From positions 62,001-126,000 of the forward strand of contig JAAUZJ010000030.1 in the NCBI GenBank assembly GCA_014804695.1: DNA of 64,000 nucleotides. Reading direction: 5' to 3'. Origin of the DNA: Lachnospiraceae bacterium (lineage in GTDB: Bacteria; Bacillota; Clostridia; Lachnospirales; Lachnospiraceae). Positions 37,872 to 45,864 of the stretch are shown in pieces. Positions within the stretch are counted from its first letter, which is position 1. The number at the start of each line of letters is the position of its first letter. A program made the translations under genes and the position numbers. The notes beneath the pieces are model-generated. The model did no database searches and had not been told where the DNA came from. It saw nothing but the letters and a program-made list of their open reading frames with translations.

Positions 37872-38014
37872 GAATATAATCCTCTATAAAATATAATAGT
37901 GTAATTTACCATCGATATTATCATATTTTGCATTGAGGGTGTTGTCAACTTCTATTTTACAAAGAGAACTTGATAGAAATATGTAATTTTTATAAAATTT
38001 TCCAATACACCCCA

Positions 38015-38043
38015 TTGACAGTTTCGGGGGGGGGTAGTATTAT
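38015..38043 (+). promoter_or_regulatory. Promoter with a G9 tract in its spacer (likely phase-variable)
   Basis: TTGACA at 38015-38020, a 17-bp spacer (38021-38037) that contains nine consecutive G at 38026-38034, and TATTAT at 38038-38043. With nine G the spacing is exactly the optimum; gain or loss of G would shift it. It lies about 80 bp before the giant secreted protein. Confidence 0.75.
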
Positions 38044-38118
38044 AGTTATAATATTTGCACTTTTACAACAAAACGTTGTGCAGAGACAATTTAATAATAT
38101 TATAGAAGGAGGATTTTT

Positions 38119-41100
38119 ATGAAACGCGGAAAGAAGAAAATGAGCAGAATTGTATCACTGCTTCTTGCGGCAGCAATGATCGTGACTTCGCTGCCACAGT
38201 CAATGCTTACTGTGAATGCCGCTGAGGTAAGTGACGTTTCGGTATCTAACGAAGCGTTTTCGGAGGAAGGAACGCAGGAGAGCGGAGCTTCTGAAAACGG
38301 AATAACAGAAGGTGAAGCTTCGGGAGATGATTCGGCGAAGGATGGAATCGCAGAGGGAGATTCATCAGGCGATAATGTTGTGGGTGAAGATTCTTCAGAA
38401 GGTAATACCTCAGATGGAGAAAATCCTGACAATGGGACTTCTAATGAAGGAAAATTGGATGGCGAGACTTCGAATGAAGGGAAGGCGGATGATGATGCCC
38501 AAGGAGAAGATAAGACTGAGGGTGAGGATTCTGAAGTCGGCGATACATCAAGTGAAGATGATGGTAAAGATGACGCCGGACAGGGAGAGGATGAGGAATC
38601 ACAGAATGGCGAGGAAGACGGAGAAGAAGCTGGTTCTGTAGATTATGATATTGCGGAGAAACCGGAATCGGAAGAGCCGCTGCTTGATGAAGGAGAGGAG
38701 AAAGAGCCGATAAGTATTAGTTTTGTGGGAAATTCTGAATCTTTTACTGTATATGATGAAAGTGGCAATGATATTACGAATAATGGATTTATCGTGCCAT
38801 ATGGAAGCATTGATATATTAAAATTTAAGATTATGCCTAAAGCTGAAACTGGATATGTTGTGGAATTTTCTGATGAACCATATCTTTATACTCAATGTAA
38901 ATGGGCAGGCATGGAGTTTTCAAAAACTGAGGTTAATGGCGGTGGATATGAATGTACAATAAGCCCTGTAGATAAAGACACTGGATATACACAAGGCATA
39001 TATATTTGGATGCGGGAAGCAAACAGAGAAACATATAAATTGAAGTTTTTATATTCAAGCGAGGATGTTGATGAGTTAGTATTAACTAACAATCCGGAAG
39101 GTGATAAGCAGAATGTAAGTAATAATGTTACTGTAAGGGTAATAAATGAGTATAGGACATCATTTAAGTTGAAAGCAAAGGCAGGAAAATCATTGGCAGT
39201 GTCGTATAAATCAGATGACCAAGATGATTATGACCGGGATGCTTTCAAGAGTTATTATGTAGAGGATGAAGACGGTTACTATAACTTTGACTTAGGAAAA
39301 GTATCTGAAAATGCAACAATAACTATACAAGAGGGATGGAAGGTCAATTTTGAGTATAATGATGATGAAATTGAGGAATTGTATAGAAAAATATTAGTAG
39401 GTGATGAAGATGATTTACTCTCAGGTAACGCGTGGTTTGAGACATGCAATATAATAAACCATACGGAAGGTGTAACTAAGGGAGAAGTTCTCTATTTTTC
39501 TTTTTATCCTACGGAAGAGTATTATTTGTGTGATGCGTCTGTAACTGATGGTTTGGGAAATAACATTGAAAAGATTTGGTACGGCGGTGATGCTCGAGAC
39601 TGGGCGGGAGGCTATGTATACAAGGTTGTTCCGACAGCTGATATGACGATTAATATAGAATTTACATCTAAAACGCTGCCGGTGACATATGTGGATGGCG
39701 TTGTTAAAAATATTAGCATAACTGCCAAAGATGAAGGCGGAGAAGCTAAAGAAGTTTATGATAAAGATAAGAAAGAAATAATTAATATTTATAGCGATAT
39801 GACGGAGTATAATATCAGCTTTGAAGTTGCAGAAGGTAAGCTTTTTGATCGCGTGGAACTTGTTAATTATTATACATGGTATGATGAAGAAACCGGTGAA
39901 ATGCAGGAGGAATATGATTACGAGAAAATAGAAGTTGAGAGAAAAGATGATGGTACTTATGCTTCCGTATACTCGTTTTGTATTTGGTCGGATTCTAGTG
40001 AACTAAGAATAATAGCAGATGATGCGTATACGGTAACATTTGTGCCGTCGGATGAAGTTAAATTATATGCATATGATGATTATGAGTTGACTAATGAATT
40101 AAGCGGAGAGAAAAATATAGTAAAGGATTCCGAATATGAATTTAGAATAACCTTTGATACGGAATATGAGTTAGCCACGCCTTATGTTATTGCAACATCG
40201 GATGGAGAGGAGCGTGAACTCAAAGTCATTGGTGACAAGTACGAGATGTGGGATCCTAGCGAAGAGAAACTGGTTTATTACTATTATTGCAGCTTTATTA
40301 CCACAGCCGATACAACGATTTCAGTTTCTCTCAAACCGCTATCCATACCGCTTAAATACGACAAGAACGCATTGAAGAATGTTGAAATAAGTGAGCAAAG
40401 AGGCGCTAAGCTTTCAGCGGATAGGGATGCCGTTATTGCTAATAAATATGATGAACTGCGTGATTGTGAAATCATGTTTGGACTTGAGGATGGTAAGACT
40501 GTTAAAGAAGCATATTATGCATATACCAGATATCATGATACATATACTGAAAATATTCCTATGTCATACGATGAAGAAACCCAGATTTACACAATCACTT
40601 TAAATGTGCCTGAAGTTGATGATTATCGGAATATGAGTATAGACTATATACAAATAGTGGCAGGTGATAAATGCGAGATATCTTTTGAGGGATATGAAGG
40701 CAAGGCGGAAATAATTGATTTTAATAATTATGAGGATATTAACTTTGATAATGATAAGCCTGTGGGAGTTGTAAAGAACAGTGAATATTTATTCAGAGTG
40801 GAATTATTGCCGGATTATAATGCGGCATTATGCCGTGTCACAACAGAAGGTGGAGAAGAACTTCCTGTAAAATATTATTCCATAAAAGGAGAGTCGTGGG
40901 AAGAAATCAGAAATATTCAATATTACAGCTTTACTCCAACAACAGATACAACAATTCATATTGAGATAAGTCCGCTGTCTATACCAATTAAATATACGGA
41001 CAGTGCTGTTGAAAGCCTTACGCTTACACATAATATGGGGGAAGTTGAGAATGCGCCAGAGTTATCCGCAGATAAGAAAGCTGTTAATGTTTGGCGTTAT

Positions 41101-44100
41101 GAAACTGATTTGAGGTTTGATTTGGAGCTTGAAAGCGGTAGAACCCTCAGTAGAATATTCAGCCGTCGTTCCAACGTAGACGATTATGGGAATAAAATAG
41201 ACGGCTATTATGAAGATGACATTCCATATCAAATGGTAGACGATAAGTATTATTTTGAAGTTGGAATATATTATGATGATTATGGCAGCAATTTACTCGA
41301 AATCGAAATTGTTACTGATAAAGTAAACCTGCGTGATTGCACGGTAGAGCTTGATCTGGATAATGATTATTGGAGGTACTATGTTTCTTATAGAGCAGAA
41401 GAAATTAAACCTGGGGTGACTCTTAAATATGAGGTAGAAGAGGGTAAGCCAGAAATCATAGATCCGAATGAATATTCCGTAACTTATGAGAATAACAGGA
41501 ATGTCGGAGAAGCCTATGTGATTATTAAGGCTAAGGAAGATTCAGAGGCTTGTACCGGAAGCATAGAAGCATATTTTGAAATTGTAAAGGCGCAGGCTCC
41601 TACAATTGATCCAATTAGTATTTCTGTGGATGTTAATGATATAAAAGAAAACCCAGATAGGGAGTTAAATCTTTCCAATAGTGTTTTAGTGAATACCGGC
41701 TTAGAACAAGGCGTTAAACCTATCTGGTATATTGTAGATACAGGGAACGAAGATTATACACCGGGTGATGTGCTTGTAGATGGAACGGATCCCTTTATAG
41801 ATTCTCAATCCCAATACTACTGGAATGAAGAAAACAAAGAAGAAAAAGTAATCTGGACTCATACTTTAAAATACAGTATCAAGGATGATGTTGATGAGGA
41901 TTCTAAGAGCGCAATGATTGTTCTGATTGCATCTTTTGACAATTACGAAGATGCCAAAATTGTCATAGAAATATCTATGGCGGAAAAAGAAGAGATTATA
42001 CTTGATGGATACTCATGTACTAGAAATAAAACATATGATGCTAAGCCGTATGACTATGATTATGATAACTTATATCTGGTGGGTGAGAACGGTTTAGAGC
42101 GTGAAGATTCAGCCGAAATTATGAAGGAATTGAAGAATTCCATTAAATTTCATTATAAAGGTGAGGAATATACAAAAGACGGATATCGGTCTTATGATTC
42201 ATATGAGGCACCTGTAAATGTAGGTAATTATACTCTGACAGTGGAACTTTCGGAAGAAAATAAGTCGTATACTGCTACTCCTTATGAGGTCGGAAATGTC
42301 AGGATAAATCGGAGAGAGATATATATCAGGGCAGAGGCGTTGAATCTTAATGTGGGAGACTTACTGCCTGATAAATATTCCTACAGAATTACTGGTGACG
42401 GATTGTTAGAGGGTGATAAGATAAGTCCGGAGCCAACGCTGCTATGCGATGCGACTGATACAGAGACGGCAAAGAAATATAAAATTGTCGTTGATACGAG
42501 TGATATGGATATCTGCAATAGTGATGGTGAAAGTGTCAGATATTATTACAGTATTGATTATTATGACAATTGGTTGACTATCTCCTCAGTATCAAAGACC
42601 GAAATAACCCTAAACCATAAAACCGGCACATCCCTTACCAAGATATATGACGGTGAAGCTTTTGACGGTATTTCGTTAATAGAAGCCAAGAATGATGAAA
42701 CACCTATAGAGGATGCTATAATTACGGTTAAGTATACCGGACGTGGAAATACAGTGTATACCGAGTCAGAAACGGCGCCTGTCGATGCGGGGACATATAC
42801 AATGAAGGCGAAGGTTGCTTCAAACGACGGACAGTATAAGTCAGAAGAACTTTCCCTTGACATAGAAATCACTAAGGCCGAAGCTCCGGTTTTGCAGGAG
42901 CAAGGAATAAATTTACCGCCTGTTACCGAAGATACTCTGAAAACTCTAGACCTTACCCAGTATATACCTACCGGATATGAAGTGACAGGTTATGGCACAG
43001 TTAACAAGACTGATTCGGCTAACATGCTTACGGGAACTGCGCAAGTAGACGCACAAGGCGTGTTGTCTTATACGCTTAAAGCGGACATAAACACAGGTAC
43101 GGCTGAACTTACTATTCCGCTTGAATTTAAGAACCATAAAGATACAACGCTGACAGTAAAAATAATGTTGACATCTAAGACATTACTGACATTGTCAAAG
43201 GCAGCAGGCGTGGACGTAAATAAGGAATATGACGGAAATGCATATAATATCCCGGCAGAAGCTGTAACTGTTTCCGGTATGTCACAGGGAACAGTAGCAC
43301 AGCCTGAGTTAGATTATACTTATACTTTAAGAGGAAGTGTAGAACCTATTACAGCACTTCATGCAGGACTCTACAGCGTAACGGTAACCGTTGCAGAGGA
43401 TGATGAGAATTATGCAGCACAGTCTCCGCTTGTAATTGACTTTGAGATAACGAAGAAGACAGTTAATGTTACAGCTAAGAGCGGCAACTGGAACAAGGCT
43501 TTTGTTGCCCGTCCTACCGCGACAGAATATCCGCTTGAATACGAGCAGGATAGTCTTATAGGCAGTGACAGCTGGACTAACGGACCTACAAGTTATACTT
43601 ATACATATAATGTAGACGGAAAAGAAACAGTATTGCCTGATACGGATGATGCATGGGAGGCTTTGGAAGCAGGTACGGTAATTACCGTTACACCTGCCGG
43701 TGCAAAGGCAACAGATGATTATGAGGTCGTTCATATTTCCGGTAAACTTACTGTAGCGGATATGCCGGAAGACGGACAGATGTATGTTCCGGATATTGAG
43801 GCGATGACCTATACAGGCAGCCAGATAAAACCTCAGGTCAAGGTATATTTTATTAAAAATGGAGAGCCAGTAGAGCTCACCTCTAAGGATTATAAGGTTA
43901 CATACGGAGAAAACAAAGACGCCGGTACAGGAACCGTAAAGATCACGGGTAAAGGAAACTACGATAAAGAAATTGAAAAAACATTTACAATTGAAAAAGC
44001 GTCAATTGGTGACGGAAGTGAGAATACAGCACTCGGAATCACCCTTAAGTATACGGACCAGTCACTTGATACCAAGGCGTCCAAACTTGTTACATCCTTA

Positions 44101-45864
44101 AAGTACAAGAAAGCGCTTAAGGAAGGAACCGACTTTACGGTAACGCTTACAAAAGCAGATGCACCCGAGGGCACAGCGCCGGTAAGCAAGACCGAAGGCA
44201 CCACACCGGCCAAGACACCTACAGGCGCAGATAAGGCAGGAGCTTACACACTGCGGATCAAGCCGGTGGATAATTCCAACTACAGCGGATATATCGAGAA
44301 GACGGTTTATATTGCAGGAAAAGACAAACTGCTTAAGAACGCTAAGATCACTATTAAGACAAAGACTCTTAAGTGGGATGACAAGGACACTACAGGCTAT
44401 GGAAATTACAATAAGGATAGCTGGGGCGGATTTTACCTTATACCAGGTTCATCCAAGGATGACGCTAAGGACTTTACCGTAAGCATGGGCAAGACTTATC
44501 TTACAAACGGTCAGACCGGTGTAAATGATAAGGATGCTGATAAGAGTCAATATTATATCTCTTATACGAATAACGATCAGGCGGGAACCGCAACCATAAC
44601 CGTTACCGGTGACGGAATAAATTACATTGGTACAAAGAGCGCAACCTTCAAGATTCAGGGAACTGCGTTTAAAGCGGGAACCAAGGCAGGAAACATTAAG
44701 CTGCCTGATACGCTCACTGCTCCGGAAGCTTATACCGGAAAAGCGATAACGAAAGACCTTAGCAGTCTGGAAATCGTAGGAAAGACCGATGGAACGAAGC
44801 TAAGCGAGGGTGTAGACTACAGCGTAACCCATAGTAACAACGTTAAAAAAGGAAATGCTACGGTAATAATTACGGCTAAGCCTGAATCAGGTTATACCGG
44901 AAGCATCAAGAAGACATTTAAGATTCAAGCTGCAGATCTGAAAAAGGCCATAAAGAGCGCAAGTGGAGGAAATGCAGAGCTTAAATCCGGGACAGACGGC
45001 AGTATAACCGGAATAGAATATAAGGATCCTGTATCTTATTCCAAAGCCGGAGCAACAATATCCGGTCTCGTATTCAAAAACGAGACGGGAACAGAGCTAA
45101 AGTCTGGAACAGACTATACGGTTAAGTATACTTATACTGATAAGAAAGATAAAAAAGCAGGTTCAAGCGCAAAAATGACTCTTAAGGGCAAAGGCAACTA
45201 TAGCGGAACAGTAGATGTAGAATTTACGATCGGCAAAGCTGCTTATAGCAACTTAGAGGTAAGCGTGGCACCGGTCAAACTCGGCAATAAGGCATTGAAA
45301 CCCAAGGTAACTGTTAAGGACGGAAAGAAAGCCCTTACGGTTTCCGAGGATGGCAAGAAGGAAGTAAAGGTAACATATGCTAATAATGAGCCTGAGAAAG
45401 TGCAGGCATGGCTTACATGGCTTGCATCCGGTTCTGCTGAGGAAACAGAGCCTGCTGCGCCTACGGTAACGATCGAAATCGTGAATAACGCTAACTACGA
45501 ACAGGTATTATCGGATACACGTACACTCAATGTATACAGCGATAAACTGGACAAAAATAAGTTAACAATCAACTGGCGTGACACTGCAAAGGTAACTGAC
45601 TTTACCTATAACAATGGCGAGCAGATTAAACCGGAAATAAGCAGTATTAATTATGATAATAAGACTTATACGGTTATGGCTGCCGGTAAAGATTATTACG
45701 CATACGATAGTAATAATGTTGAAATATTCAAGATTATATACGGTGCAAACAACAAGTCAGGCAAAAAGGCAGGAAGTGTAACGATAGAAGGTTTGAAACT
45801 TTACGGTGGTAAGTATACTGAGAAGTTTGAGATTAAACCAAGAGATATAGTAATAAATAATTAA
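38119..45864 (+). CDS. Giant secreted repeat protein (2581 residues)
   Basis: A Sec signal peptide (MKRGKKKMSRIVSLLLAAAM..., cleavage near VNA-AE, residue 34) is followed by a ~160-residue Ser/Gly/Glu/Asp linker. Three related modules follow to about residue 1100, each closing with a similar strand (SKTLPVTYVDGVVKNI, KPLSIPLKYDKNALKNV, SPLSIPIKYTDSAVESL). From about 1450 there are Ig-like/MBG-like modules with the YDGEAFDG..., VDAGTYTMKAKV pattern, and from about 1880 modules with GTGTVKITGKGNYDKEIEKT-like strands. No LPXTG, SLH or choline-binding anchor is visible at the C-terminus, so it is released or held by other contacts. AAGGAGG precedes the ATG; a terminator follows. Adhesion or matrix function is inference. 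Confidence 0.85.
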   Translation: MKRGKKKMSRIVSLLLAAAMIVTSLPQSMLTVNAAEVSDVSVSNEAFSEEGTQESGASENGITEGEASGDDSAKDGIAEGDSSGDNVVGEDSSEGNTSDGENPDNGTSNEGKLDGETSNEGKADDDAQGEDKTEGEDSEVGDTSSEDDGKDDAGQGEDEESQNGEEDGEEAGSVDYDIAEKPESEEPLLDEGEEKEPISISFVGNSESFTVYDESGNDITNNGFIVPYGSIDILKFKIMPKAETGYVVEFSDEPYLYTQCKWAGMEFSKTEVNGGGYECTISPVDKDTGYTQGIYIWMREANRETYKLKFLYSSEDVDELVLTNNPEGDKQNVSNNVTVRVINEYRTSFKLKAKAGKSLAVSYKSDDQDDYDRDAFKSYYVEDEDGYYNFDLGKVSENATITIQEGWKVNFEYNDDEIEELYRKILVGDEDDLLSGNAWFETCNIINHTEGVTKGEVLYFSFYPTEEYYLCDASVTDGLGNNIEKIWYGGDARDWAGGYVYKVVPTADMTINIEFTSKTLPVTYVDGVVKNISITAKDEGGEAKEVYDKDKKEIINIYSDMTEYNISFEVAEGKLFDRVELVNYYTWYDEETGEMQEEYDYEKIEVERKDDGTYASVYSFCIWSDSSELRIIADDAYTVTFVPSDEVKLYAYDDYELTNELSGEKNIVKDSEYEFRITFDTEYELATPYVIATSDGEERELKVIGDKYEMWDPSEEKLVYYYYCSFITTADTTISVSLKPLSIPLKYDKNALKNVEISEQRGAKLSADRDAVIANKYDELRDCEIMFGLEDGKTVKEAYYAYTRYHDTYTENIPMSYDEETQIYTITLNVPEVDDYRNMSIDYIQIVAGDKCEISFEGYEGKAEIIDFNNYEDINFDNDKPVGVVKNSEYLFRVELLPDYNAALCRVTTEGGEELPVKYYSIKGESWEEIRNIQYYSFTPTTDTTIHIEISPLSIPIKYTDSAVESLTLTHNMGEVENAPELSADKKAVNVWRYETDLRFDLELESGRTLSRIFSRRSNVDDYGNKIDGYYEDDIPYQMVDDKYYFEVGIYYDDYGSNLLEIEIVTDKVNLRDCTVELDLDNDYWRYYVSYRAEEIKPGVTLKYEVEEGKPEIIDPNEYSVTYENNRNVGEAYVIIKAKEDSEACTGSIEAYFEIVKAQAPTIDPISISVDVNDIKENPDRELNLSNSVLVNTGLEQGVKPIWYIVDTGNEDYTPGDVLVDGTDPFIDSQSQYYWNEENKEEKVIWTHTLKYSIKDDVDEDSKSAMIVLIASFDNYEDAKIVIEISMAEKEEIILDGYSCTRNKTYDAKPYDYDYDNLYLVGENGLEREDSAEIMKELKNSIKFHYKGEEYTKDGYRSYDSYEAPVNVGNYTLTVELSEENKSYTATPYEVGNVRINRREIYIRAEALNLNVGDLLPDKYSYRITGDGLLEGDKISPEPTLLCDATDTETAKKYKIVVDTSDMDICNSDGESVRYYYSIDYYDNWLTISSVSKTEITLNHKTGTSLTKIYDGEAFDGISLIEAKNDETPIEDAIITVKYTGRGNTVYTESETAPVDAGTYTMKAKVASNDGQYKSEELSLDIEITKAEAPVLQEQGINLPPVTEDTLKTLDLTQYIPTGYEVTGYGTVNKTDSANMLTGTAQVDAQGVLSYTLKADINTGTAELTIPLEFKNHKDTTLTVKIMLTSKTLLTLSKAAGVDVNKEYDGNAYNIPAEAVTVSGMSQGTVAQPELDYTYTLRGSVEPITALHAGLYSVTVTVAEDDENYAAQSPLVIDFEITKKTVNVTAKSGNWNKAFVARPTATEYPLEYEQDSLIGSDSWTNGPTSYTYTYNVDGKETVLPDTDDAWEALEAGTVITVTPAGAKATDDYEVVHISGKLTVADMPEDGQMYVPDIEAMTYTGSQIKPQVKVYFIKNGEPVELTSKDYKVTYGENKDAGTGTVKITGKGNYDKEIEKTFTIEKASIGDGSENTALGITLKYTDQSLDTKASKLVTSLKYKKALKEGTDFTVTLTKADAPEGTAPVSKTEGTTPAKTPTGADKAGAYTLRIKPVDNSNYSGYIEKTVYIAGKDKLLKNAKITIKTKTLKWDDKDTTGYGNYNKDSWGGFYLIPGSSKDDAKDFTVSMGKTYLTNGQTGVNDKDADKSQYYISYTNNDQAGTATITVTGDGINYIGTKSATFKIQGTAFKAGTKAGNIKLPDTLTAPEAYTGKAITKDLSSLEIVGKTDGTKLSEGVDYSVTHSNNVKKGNATVIITAKPESGYTGSIKKTFKIQAADLKKAIKSASGGNAELKSGTDGSITGIEYKDPVSYSKAGATISGLVFKNETGTELKSGTDYTVKYTYTDKKDKKAGSSAKMTLKGKGNYSGTVDVEFTIGKAAYSNLEVSVAPVKLGNKALKPKVTVKDGKKALTVSEDGKKEVKVTYANNEPEKVQAWLTWLASGSAEETEPAAPTVTIEIVNNANYEQVLSDTRTLNVYSDKLDKNKLTINWRDTAKVTDFTYNNGEQIKPEISSINYDNKTYTVMAAGKDYYAYDSNNVEIFKIIYGANNKSGKKAGSVTIEGLKLYGGKYTEKFEIKPRDIVINN

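What the first reader, a model, noticed from the sequence alone, without database searches (positions are those of the whole stretch)
38015..38043. G9 tract in the promoter spacer of the giant secreted protein: probable phase variation
Nine G residues (38026-38034) lie between TTGACA and TATTAT. With nine, the spacer is exactly 17 bp, the optimum; slippage by one or more bases would lower transcription. This mechanism is established for porA and opc in Neisseria, where poly-G or poly-C tracts sit between the promoter boxes. It is the only such tract noticed in this window, and it sits before the largest, surface-type gene.
Basis: partly seen in the sequence, partly recalled or inferred. Interest (0 to 1): 0.85.

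Follow-up and report, generated by a model that had tools for sequence, protein, structure and literature searches.

The report
Slippery G-run in a surface-gene promoter
A run of nine Gs sits between the two halves of the promoter of a giant secreted protein in what looks like a Lachnospiraceae genome, and related genomes carry similar runs at the start of related genes, so the bacterium probably switches this protein up and down by random slips of DNA copying.

Summary
In detail: TTGACA 38015-38020, G9 38026-38034, TATTAT 38038-38043, spacer 17, before a 2581-aa secreted protein. Phase variation by slippage is well supported by comparison but not shown at this locus. (1) TTGACA-polyG-TATWAT: 24 matches in 19 of 397 family genomes and 16 in 13 of 77 genus genomes; the reversed pattern has 0 in both. 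(2) In public contigs such promoters precede a signal peptide or lipobox in 50 of 80 counted genes, against 93 of 492 background ORFs. (3) Of 50 homologous gene starts in the genus, 17 carry a G/C run of 8 or more, about 0.45 expected: in promoters, a leader or the coding frame. Five of ten coding runs are out of frame with another frame open. Weak point: 17 bp as the fully-on state. Poly-G promoters sit mostly at 18-19 or 16, rarely at 17 (13 of 139, against 15 of 32 ordinary promoters). Precedents: porA, opc and, closer, P. acnes PPA1880. Verdict: new member of a known kind, in a family for which my searches listed no report.

The parts
38015..38020 (+). -35 box TTGACA
38026..38034 (+). G9 tract inside the 17-bp spacer
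38038..38043 (+). -10 box TATTAT
38047..38052 (+). second, perfect TATAAT without a suitably spaced -35 (26 bp from TTGACA)
   Evidence: spacing read from the sequence
37970..37998 (+). weaker upstream promoter-like site TTGATA-17-TAAAAT that does not depend on the G tract
   Evidence: 7 sites found in the region against 3.0 +/- 1.6 in shuffles, so it may be chance
38106..38112 (+). Shine-Dalgarno AAGGAGG of the giant gene
   Evidence: read from the sequence
38119..45864 (+). giant secreted protein, 2581 aa: signal peptide (read from the translation), acidic linker (36% D+E in residues 36-200), C-terminal region about 1880-2577 shared with relatives; no LPxT[GAN] motif; no Pfam match at 0.001, no NCBIfam match above cut-off, no PDB match at 0.1

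Best explanation
The G9 tract is a contingency site. [quoted passage not shown] A clonal population is then a mixture of cells that make much, little or none of it. Shown here: the sequence, the enrichment of the architecture against its reversed control, its preference for secreted-protein genes, and the repeated presence of G/C tracts at the starts of related giant genes, in several cases out of frame. Inferred: that this tract slips at a useful rate in this species, that these boxes are the used promoter, and which length is most active.
For: Boxes, tract and spacing. TTGACA-N-G7+-N-TATWAT: 24 matches in 19 of 397 family genomes, reversed pattern 0; 16 in 13 of 77 genus genomes, reversed 0; poly-C instead of poly-G only 4 in 4 of 397. 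Downstream genes: signal peptide or lipobox in 50 of 80 against 93 of 492 background ORFs, Fisher p 1e-14. Same protein family in the genus: 17 of 50 gene starts with a run of 8 or more, about 0.45 expected as an upper estimate, P 2e-21 (starts not independent). Four orthologues have TTGACA-N10-G9-TATAAT. Ten runs of 7 or more lie in the coding start, five of them out of frame, each with 439 aa or more open in another frame after the tract (1527 aa in G034). Tract length differs in 8 of 14 related promoter pairs, the rest of the spacer in 2 of 14 (p 0.046). The G047 and G007 homologues have G7 and G10 before the -10. The same layout with strain-variable length is described for P. acnes PPA1880 and for porA. 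A tract of eight or nine Gs can be mixed within one culture, as in C. jejuni cgtB.
Against: No length variation or expression data for this locus. The four orthologous G9 promoters (G011, G017, G019, G055; 85-95% identical DNA) all have exactly nine Gs, and a fifth, more distant homologue (G053) has a different upstream region without a tract. The full-length orthologue of the window gene (G050, 57% identity) has no tract: an acetyltransferase-like gene (my reading) lies where the promoter would be. 31 of 50 homologous starts have no run of 7 or more. G047, G007 and G005 lack a TTGACA before their tract. The own genome has few long tracts (nine of length 8-9), unlike two relatives, G001 and G003, whose tracts peak at 10. 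An upstream promoter-like site could drive the gene regardless.
Confidence: 0.74

Rival explanations
1. The tract is a fixed spacer element: it sets a constant promoter strength (or stiffens the spacer) and does not vary at a useful rate in this species.
For: Four orthologous promoters in relatives all keep exactly G9; the own genome has few long tracts.
Against: Tract length differs in 8 of 14 related promoter pairs while the rest of the spacer differs in 2; spacer lengths of poly-G promoters are broader than those of ordinary promoters and centred elsewhere; the same gene family carries tracts inside reading frames, five of ten out of frame.
Confidence: 0.15
2. The G9 is a chance run and the gene is driven mainly by another site, such as TTGATA-17-TAAAAT at 37970-37998.
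For: Nine runs of 8-9 in a 3.65-Mb genome is near what the window's decline of run lengths would give (my extrapolation); an upstream promoter-like site exists.
Against: The reversed pattern occurs 0 times in 397 family and 0 times in 77 genus genomes; the boxes are 11 of 12 consensus; related giant genes carry tracts at the same place.
Confidence: 0.09
3. The tract is a protein-binding or structural site (repressor target, G-rich strand structure) and acts without length change.
For: Strong preference for G over C on the non-template strand, 24 against 4.
Against: Across loci the G run and the boxes are what recurs; run lengths go from 7 to 14; a single G run is not expected to form an intramolecular four-strand structure (recalled).
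Confidence: 0.02

Closest known systems
Neisseria meningitidis porA promoter (opc only recalled)
   Same: Poly-G between -35 and -10 of a surface-protein gene; one base changes expression (10G about 2-fold and 9G 13-fold lower on the surface than 11G; passages of PMC3639595).
   Different: Gram-negative pathogen; outer-membrane porin; variation shown by experiment, here not.
Propionibacterium (Cutibacterium) acnes PPA1880
   Same: Gram-positive commensal; G tract in the putative promoter spacer of a secreted putative adhesin; spacer 18, 20 or 23 nt in three strains, protein secreted only by the strain with 18 (passages of PMC3224659).
   Different: Different protein, with PT repeats; strain variation known there, not here; the authors also allow that the tract is coding.
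Bifidobacterium breve pilus loci bbr_0113 and bbr_1889
   Same: Gut commensal; G11 and G10 tracts slip in culture and in mice; the paper also mentions unlisted G tracts in promoter spacers (passages of PMC9187656).
   Different: The studied tracts are in coding sequence, like those of G033, G034 and others here, not in the promoter.
Haemophilus influenzae hifA/hifB
   Same: Repeat number changes the -35/-10 spacing (passage of the review PMC3899988).
   Different: TA dinucleotide repeat, divergent promoter pair.

Membership tests
Promoter-spacer homopolymer phase-variable locus (porA/PPA1880 type) | Homopolymer between a recognisable -35 and -10 | tested here: met
   reversed-pattern control 0 in 397 and 0 in 77 genomes
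Promoter-spacer homopolymer phase-variable locus (porA/PPA1880 type) | Gene encodes a surface or secreted product | tested here: met
   signal peptide read from the translation; surface attachment not tested; class-wide 50 of 80 against 93 of 492 by a crude rule
Promoter-spacer homopolymer phase-variable locus (porA/PPA1880 type) | Tract length varies between cells or strains | not testable with these tools
   one genome per species, no reads; between loci and species only: 8 of 14 related promoter pairs differ, but four orthologues all have G9
Promoter-spacer homopolymer phase-variable locus (porA/PPA1880 type) | Transcription depends on tract length | not testable with these tools
   needs a reporter or RNA data
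Promoter-spacer homopolymer phase-variable locus (porA/PPA1880 type) | Transcription starts from these boxes | not testable with these tools
   no RNA data; a rival upstream site exists
Giant secreted protein family of this genus | Homologous start and C-terminal region | tested here: met
   N-terminus in 30 of 77 genomes, the own included; the C-terminal part of the window protein aligns with all 8 relatives compared (9 stretches fetched; the out-of-frame G034 copy was not aligned)
Giant secreted protein family of this genus | G/C tract near the start (a common, not universal, feature) | tested here: met
   window gene, and 17 of 50 starts overall with a run of 8 or more

The most novel reading that the evidence does not exclude
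Poly-G spacer promoters are a distinct, widespread promoter class of gut anaerobes, above all of this family, devoted to surface and secreted proteins. Their spacing rule differs from that of ordinary housekeeping promoters: assemblies sit at 18-19 (and 16) bp and avoid 17, either because a G run takes a shorter, A-like helix so that the optimum is shifted, or because populations rest in an off state next to the optimum. In this genus one family of giant secreted proteins has acquired slippery tracts several times, in spacer, leader or coding frame.
Probability: 0.4. Interest if true: 0.75.

Novelty: new member of a known kind. Interest (0 to 1): 0.62.

Why it matters
Phase variation in gut Firmicutes is mostly known through DNA inversion (recalled). 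A slippage-driven class of promoters before surface and secreted proteins would mean that short-read assemblies hide which surface proteins a strain makes, and that expression must be read from tract length. It also gives a clean test of how spacer length and helix form set promoter strength, using many natural examples.

Tried and rejected
Pfam, NCBIfam and PDB sequence searches of the giant protein gave nothing above chance. A looser own-genome pattern (TTG..G6..TANNNT) was little better than its reversed control (8 matches against 6), so loose matches were dropped. A phylum-wide draw with G8 gave 3 of 398 including the own genome. At G8 the family count, taken by hand, is 15 of 397 with the own genome in it, against 2 of 397 in the phylum draw without it (p 0.002). 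So the class is concentrated in the family. The 4 poly-C matches were not pursued. The signal-peptide rule is crude and home-made; it was applied alike to foreground and background, and some foreground genes may remain in the background with another start, which would weaken the contrast. Of 122 wide-set promoters, 26 had no ORF with a ribosome site within 300 bp and 16 had one shorter than 100 aa; these 42 were dropped from the 50-of-80 count. Of 144 deduplicated promoters, 5 with spacer outside 14-21 were dropped from the 13-of-139 count. The 50 homologous starts are not independent (for example four G9 orthologues), so P 2e-21 is a guide only. The 14 promoter pairs include three identical copies of one promoter and some pairs of only 60-63% flank identity. 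Resting state and shifted optimum cannot be told apart here.

Full report
What is there. The window lies in a 3.65-Mb, 55-contig genome. No call names it; I take it for a member of the Lachnospiraceae from the style of its secreted proteins and because its family has more than 330 genera in the draw (inference). At 38015-38043 stands TTGACA-GTTTC-G9-TAG-TATTAT with a 17-bp spacer, followed by a leader, a Shine-Dalgarno AAGGAGG and an ORF of 2581 aa with a signal peptide and an acidic linker. G9 is the longest G or C run of the window. The genome holds nine G/C runs of 8 or more: six of 8 and three of 9. So the run is not rare by length; what is unusual is its place.

Is the place more than chance? 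The pattern TTGACA-N3-12-G7-N0-5-TATWAT was sought in 397 genomes of the family: 24 matches in 19 genomes, and 0 for the same pattern read backwards. In the 77 genus genomes there are 16 matches in 13 genomes, control 0. With C in place of G there are 4 matches in 4 of 397 (24 against 4, p 2e-4). A phylum-wide draw with G8 found 3 of 398 including the own genome, so the class is concentrated in this family. The 80 listed titles include Clostridia, Bacilli, Saccharibacteria, Candidatus Ancillula, Blautia wexlerae, Streptobacillus and Helicobacter, many from animal-gut samples by their titles, but also groundwater and lake records.

What do such promoters drive? In those 118 stretches (122 promoters), the first ORF of 100 aa or more carries a signal peptide or lipobox by a simple rule in 50 of 80 cases, against 93 of 492 other ORFs of the same contigs (odds ratio 7.2, p 1e-14). 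The family set shows the same tendency: 11 of 16 (24 promoters, 8 without such an ORF).

The gene's own family. The first 67 residues have matches at 50 places in 30 of 77 genus genomes, the own included. I read all 50 starts. A G/C run of 7 or more lies within -150..+450 in 19, and of 8 or more in 17, against about 0.45 expected from each genome's own density, an upper estimate because overlapping matches were counted. Eight runs are upstream at promoter distance: the window; G011, G017, G019 and G055 with TTGACA-N10-G9-TATAAT, spacer 19; G047 with G7, G007 with G10 and G005 with G8 (cut by a contig end), these three without a TTGACA. One is in the leader (G071) and ten are in the coding start. 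Of these ten, five are in frame and five out of frame with an early stop; in each of the five another frame stays open for 439 aa or more after the tract, 1527 aa in G034. That is the ordinary signature of an on/off reading-frame switch. The members form a real family: the window protein aligns over full length with the G050 orthologue (57%) and over roughly its last 500-700 residues with the other seven relatives compared.

Does length vary? Strain data are not held. Between related promoters, G length differs in 8 of 14 pairs and the remaining spacer in 2 (p 0.046). Against this, the four G9 orthologues are all nine, the more distant G053 homologue has no tract, and the G050 orthologue has none either, with an acetyltransferase-like gene in the promoter's place. 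Two relatives whose tracts were fully listed show a length peak at 10 (G003: 8 x1, 9 x4, 10 x10, 11 x2; G001: 8 x1, 9 x1, 10 x5, 11 x2), not the steady decline of random runs; the own genome does not show this peak.

The spacing. Ordinary TTGACA..TATWAT promoters on the same contigs peak at 17 (15 of 32 in 14-21). Poly-G promoters, after removing related copies, sit at 14 x2, 15 x12, 16 x19, 17 x13, 18 x29, 19 x42, 20 x16, 21 x6; 17 is rare (13 of 139, p 4e-6). In the genus the 16 matches have spacer 19 (10), 16 (4), 18 (1) and 17 (1, the window). This fits promoters that wander in length, and it speaks against reading 17 as the obvious on-state. In P. acnes PPA1880 the strain that secretes the protein has 18. 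For porA, 10G is about 2-fold and 9G 13-fold lower on the surface than 11G; the spacer lengths of porA I only recall. A G run may adopt a shorter A-like helix and shift the optimum (recalled physical chemistry; my one search, listed no paper on it), or populations may rest off-optimum. I cannot separate the two.

Mechanism, with steps marked. Slippage of the tract: inferred, with between-species support; nine Gs can slip, as passages on C. jejuni cgtB with mixed 8 and 9 Gs show (PMC6437147). Change of spacer and so of transcription: established for porA and proposed for PPA1880, inferred here. Use of these boxes: inferred; a weaker upstream site exists. Function of the protein: unknown by sequence; secreted, very large, with a family C-terminal region; a role in contact with host, phage or neighbours is a guess.

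Literature. Searches of the held library listed no title on homopolymer phase variation in Lachnospiraceae. Two lists were capped (20 of 364, 20 of 4,159), and subscription journals and preprints are mostly not held. The one paper holding all terms (PMC6437147) concerns C. jejuni by the passages seen. I saw passages of PMC3899988, PMC3639595, PMC9187656, PMC3224659 and PMC6437147; all other papers only as search listings.

Conclusion. It is best filed as a new member of the known kind of promoter-spacer homopolymer switches, likely but not proved, and as one example of a promoter class that recurs in its family.

Noticed in passing
L227:5481-5536 (own genome, contig C7): A 16-codon reading start runs into a G9 tract out of frame; 120 aa stay open in another frame. 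It lies upstream of another giant secreted gene (L227:5979 onward). A second slippage candidate in the same genome.
   Followed up: partly
L224 (G003:C54:211500-231000): Five G9-G10 tracts within about 16 kb of what read like sugar-transfer and glycan genes (my reading, no family search); an acyltransferase-like ORF is split over two frames near its tract. Looks like a phase-variable surface-glycan cluster.
   Followed up: partly
77 genus genomes: Overlapping G8 matches range from 0 (G041) to 188 (G069) per genome: tract load differs enormously between species of one genus.
   Followed up: no
L226 (own genome, contig C27): A G8 in frame in the acidic linker of a secreted protein of at least 2193 aa that reads like a pectin-active enzyme (no family search); may be plain glycine codons.
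   Followed up: partly
L088, L111, L131, L163 (Candidatus Ancillula, one MAG): Four poly-G spacer promoters with similar cores and G11, G12, G12 and G13 in one genome.
   Followed up: no
L073, L083, L085 (G287): Three copies of one G7 spacer promoter, 97-100% identical in their flanks; the two with a called ORF precede different genes about 320 bp on, as if the promoter itself were moved or duplicated.
   Followed up: no
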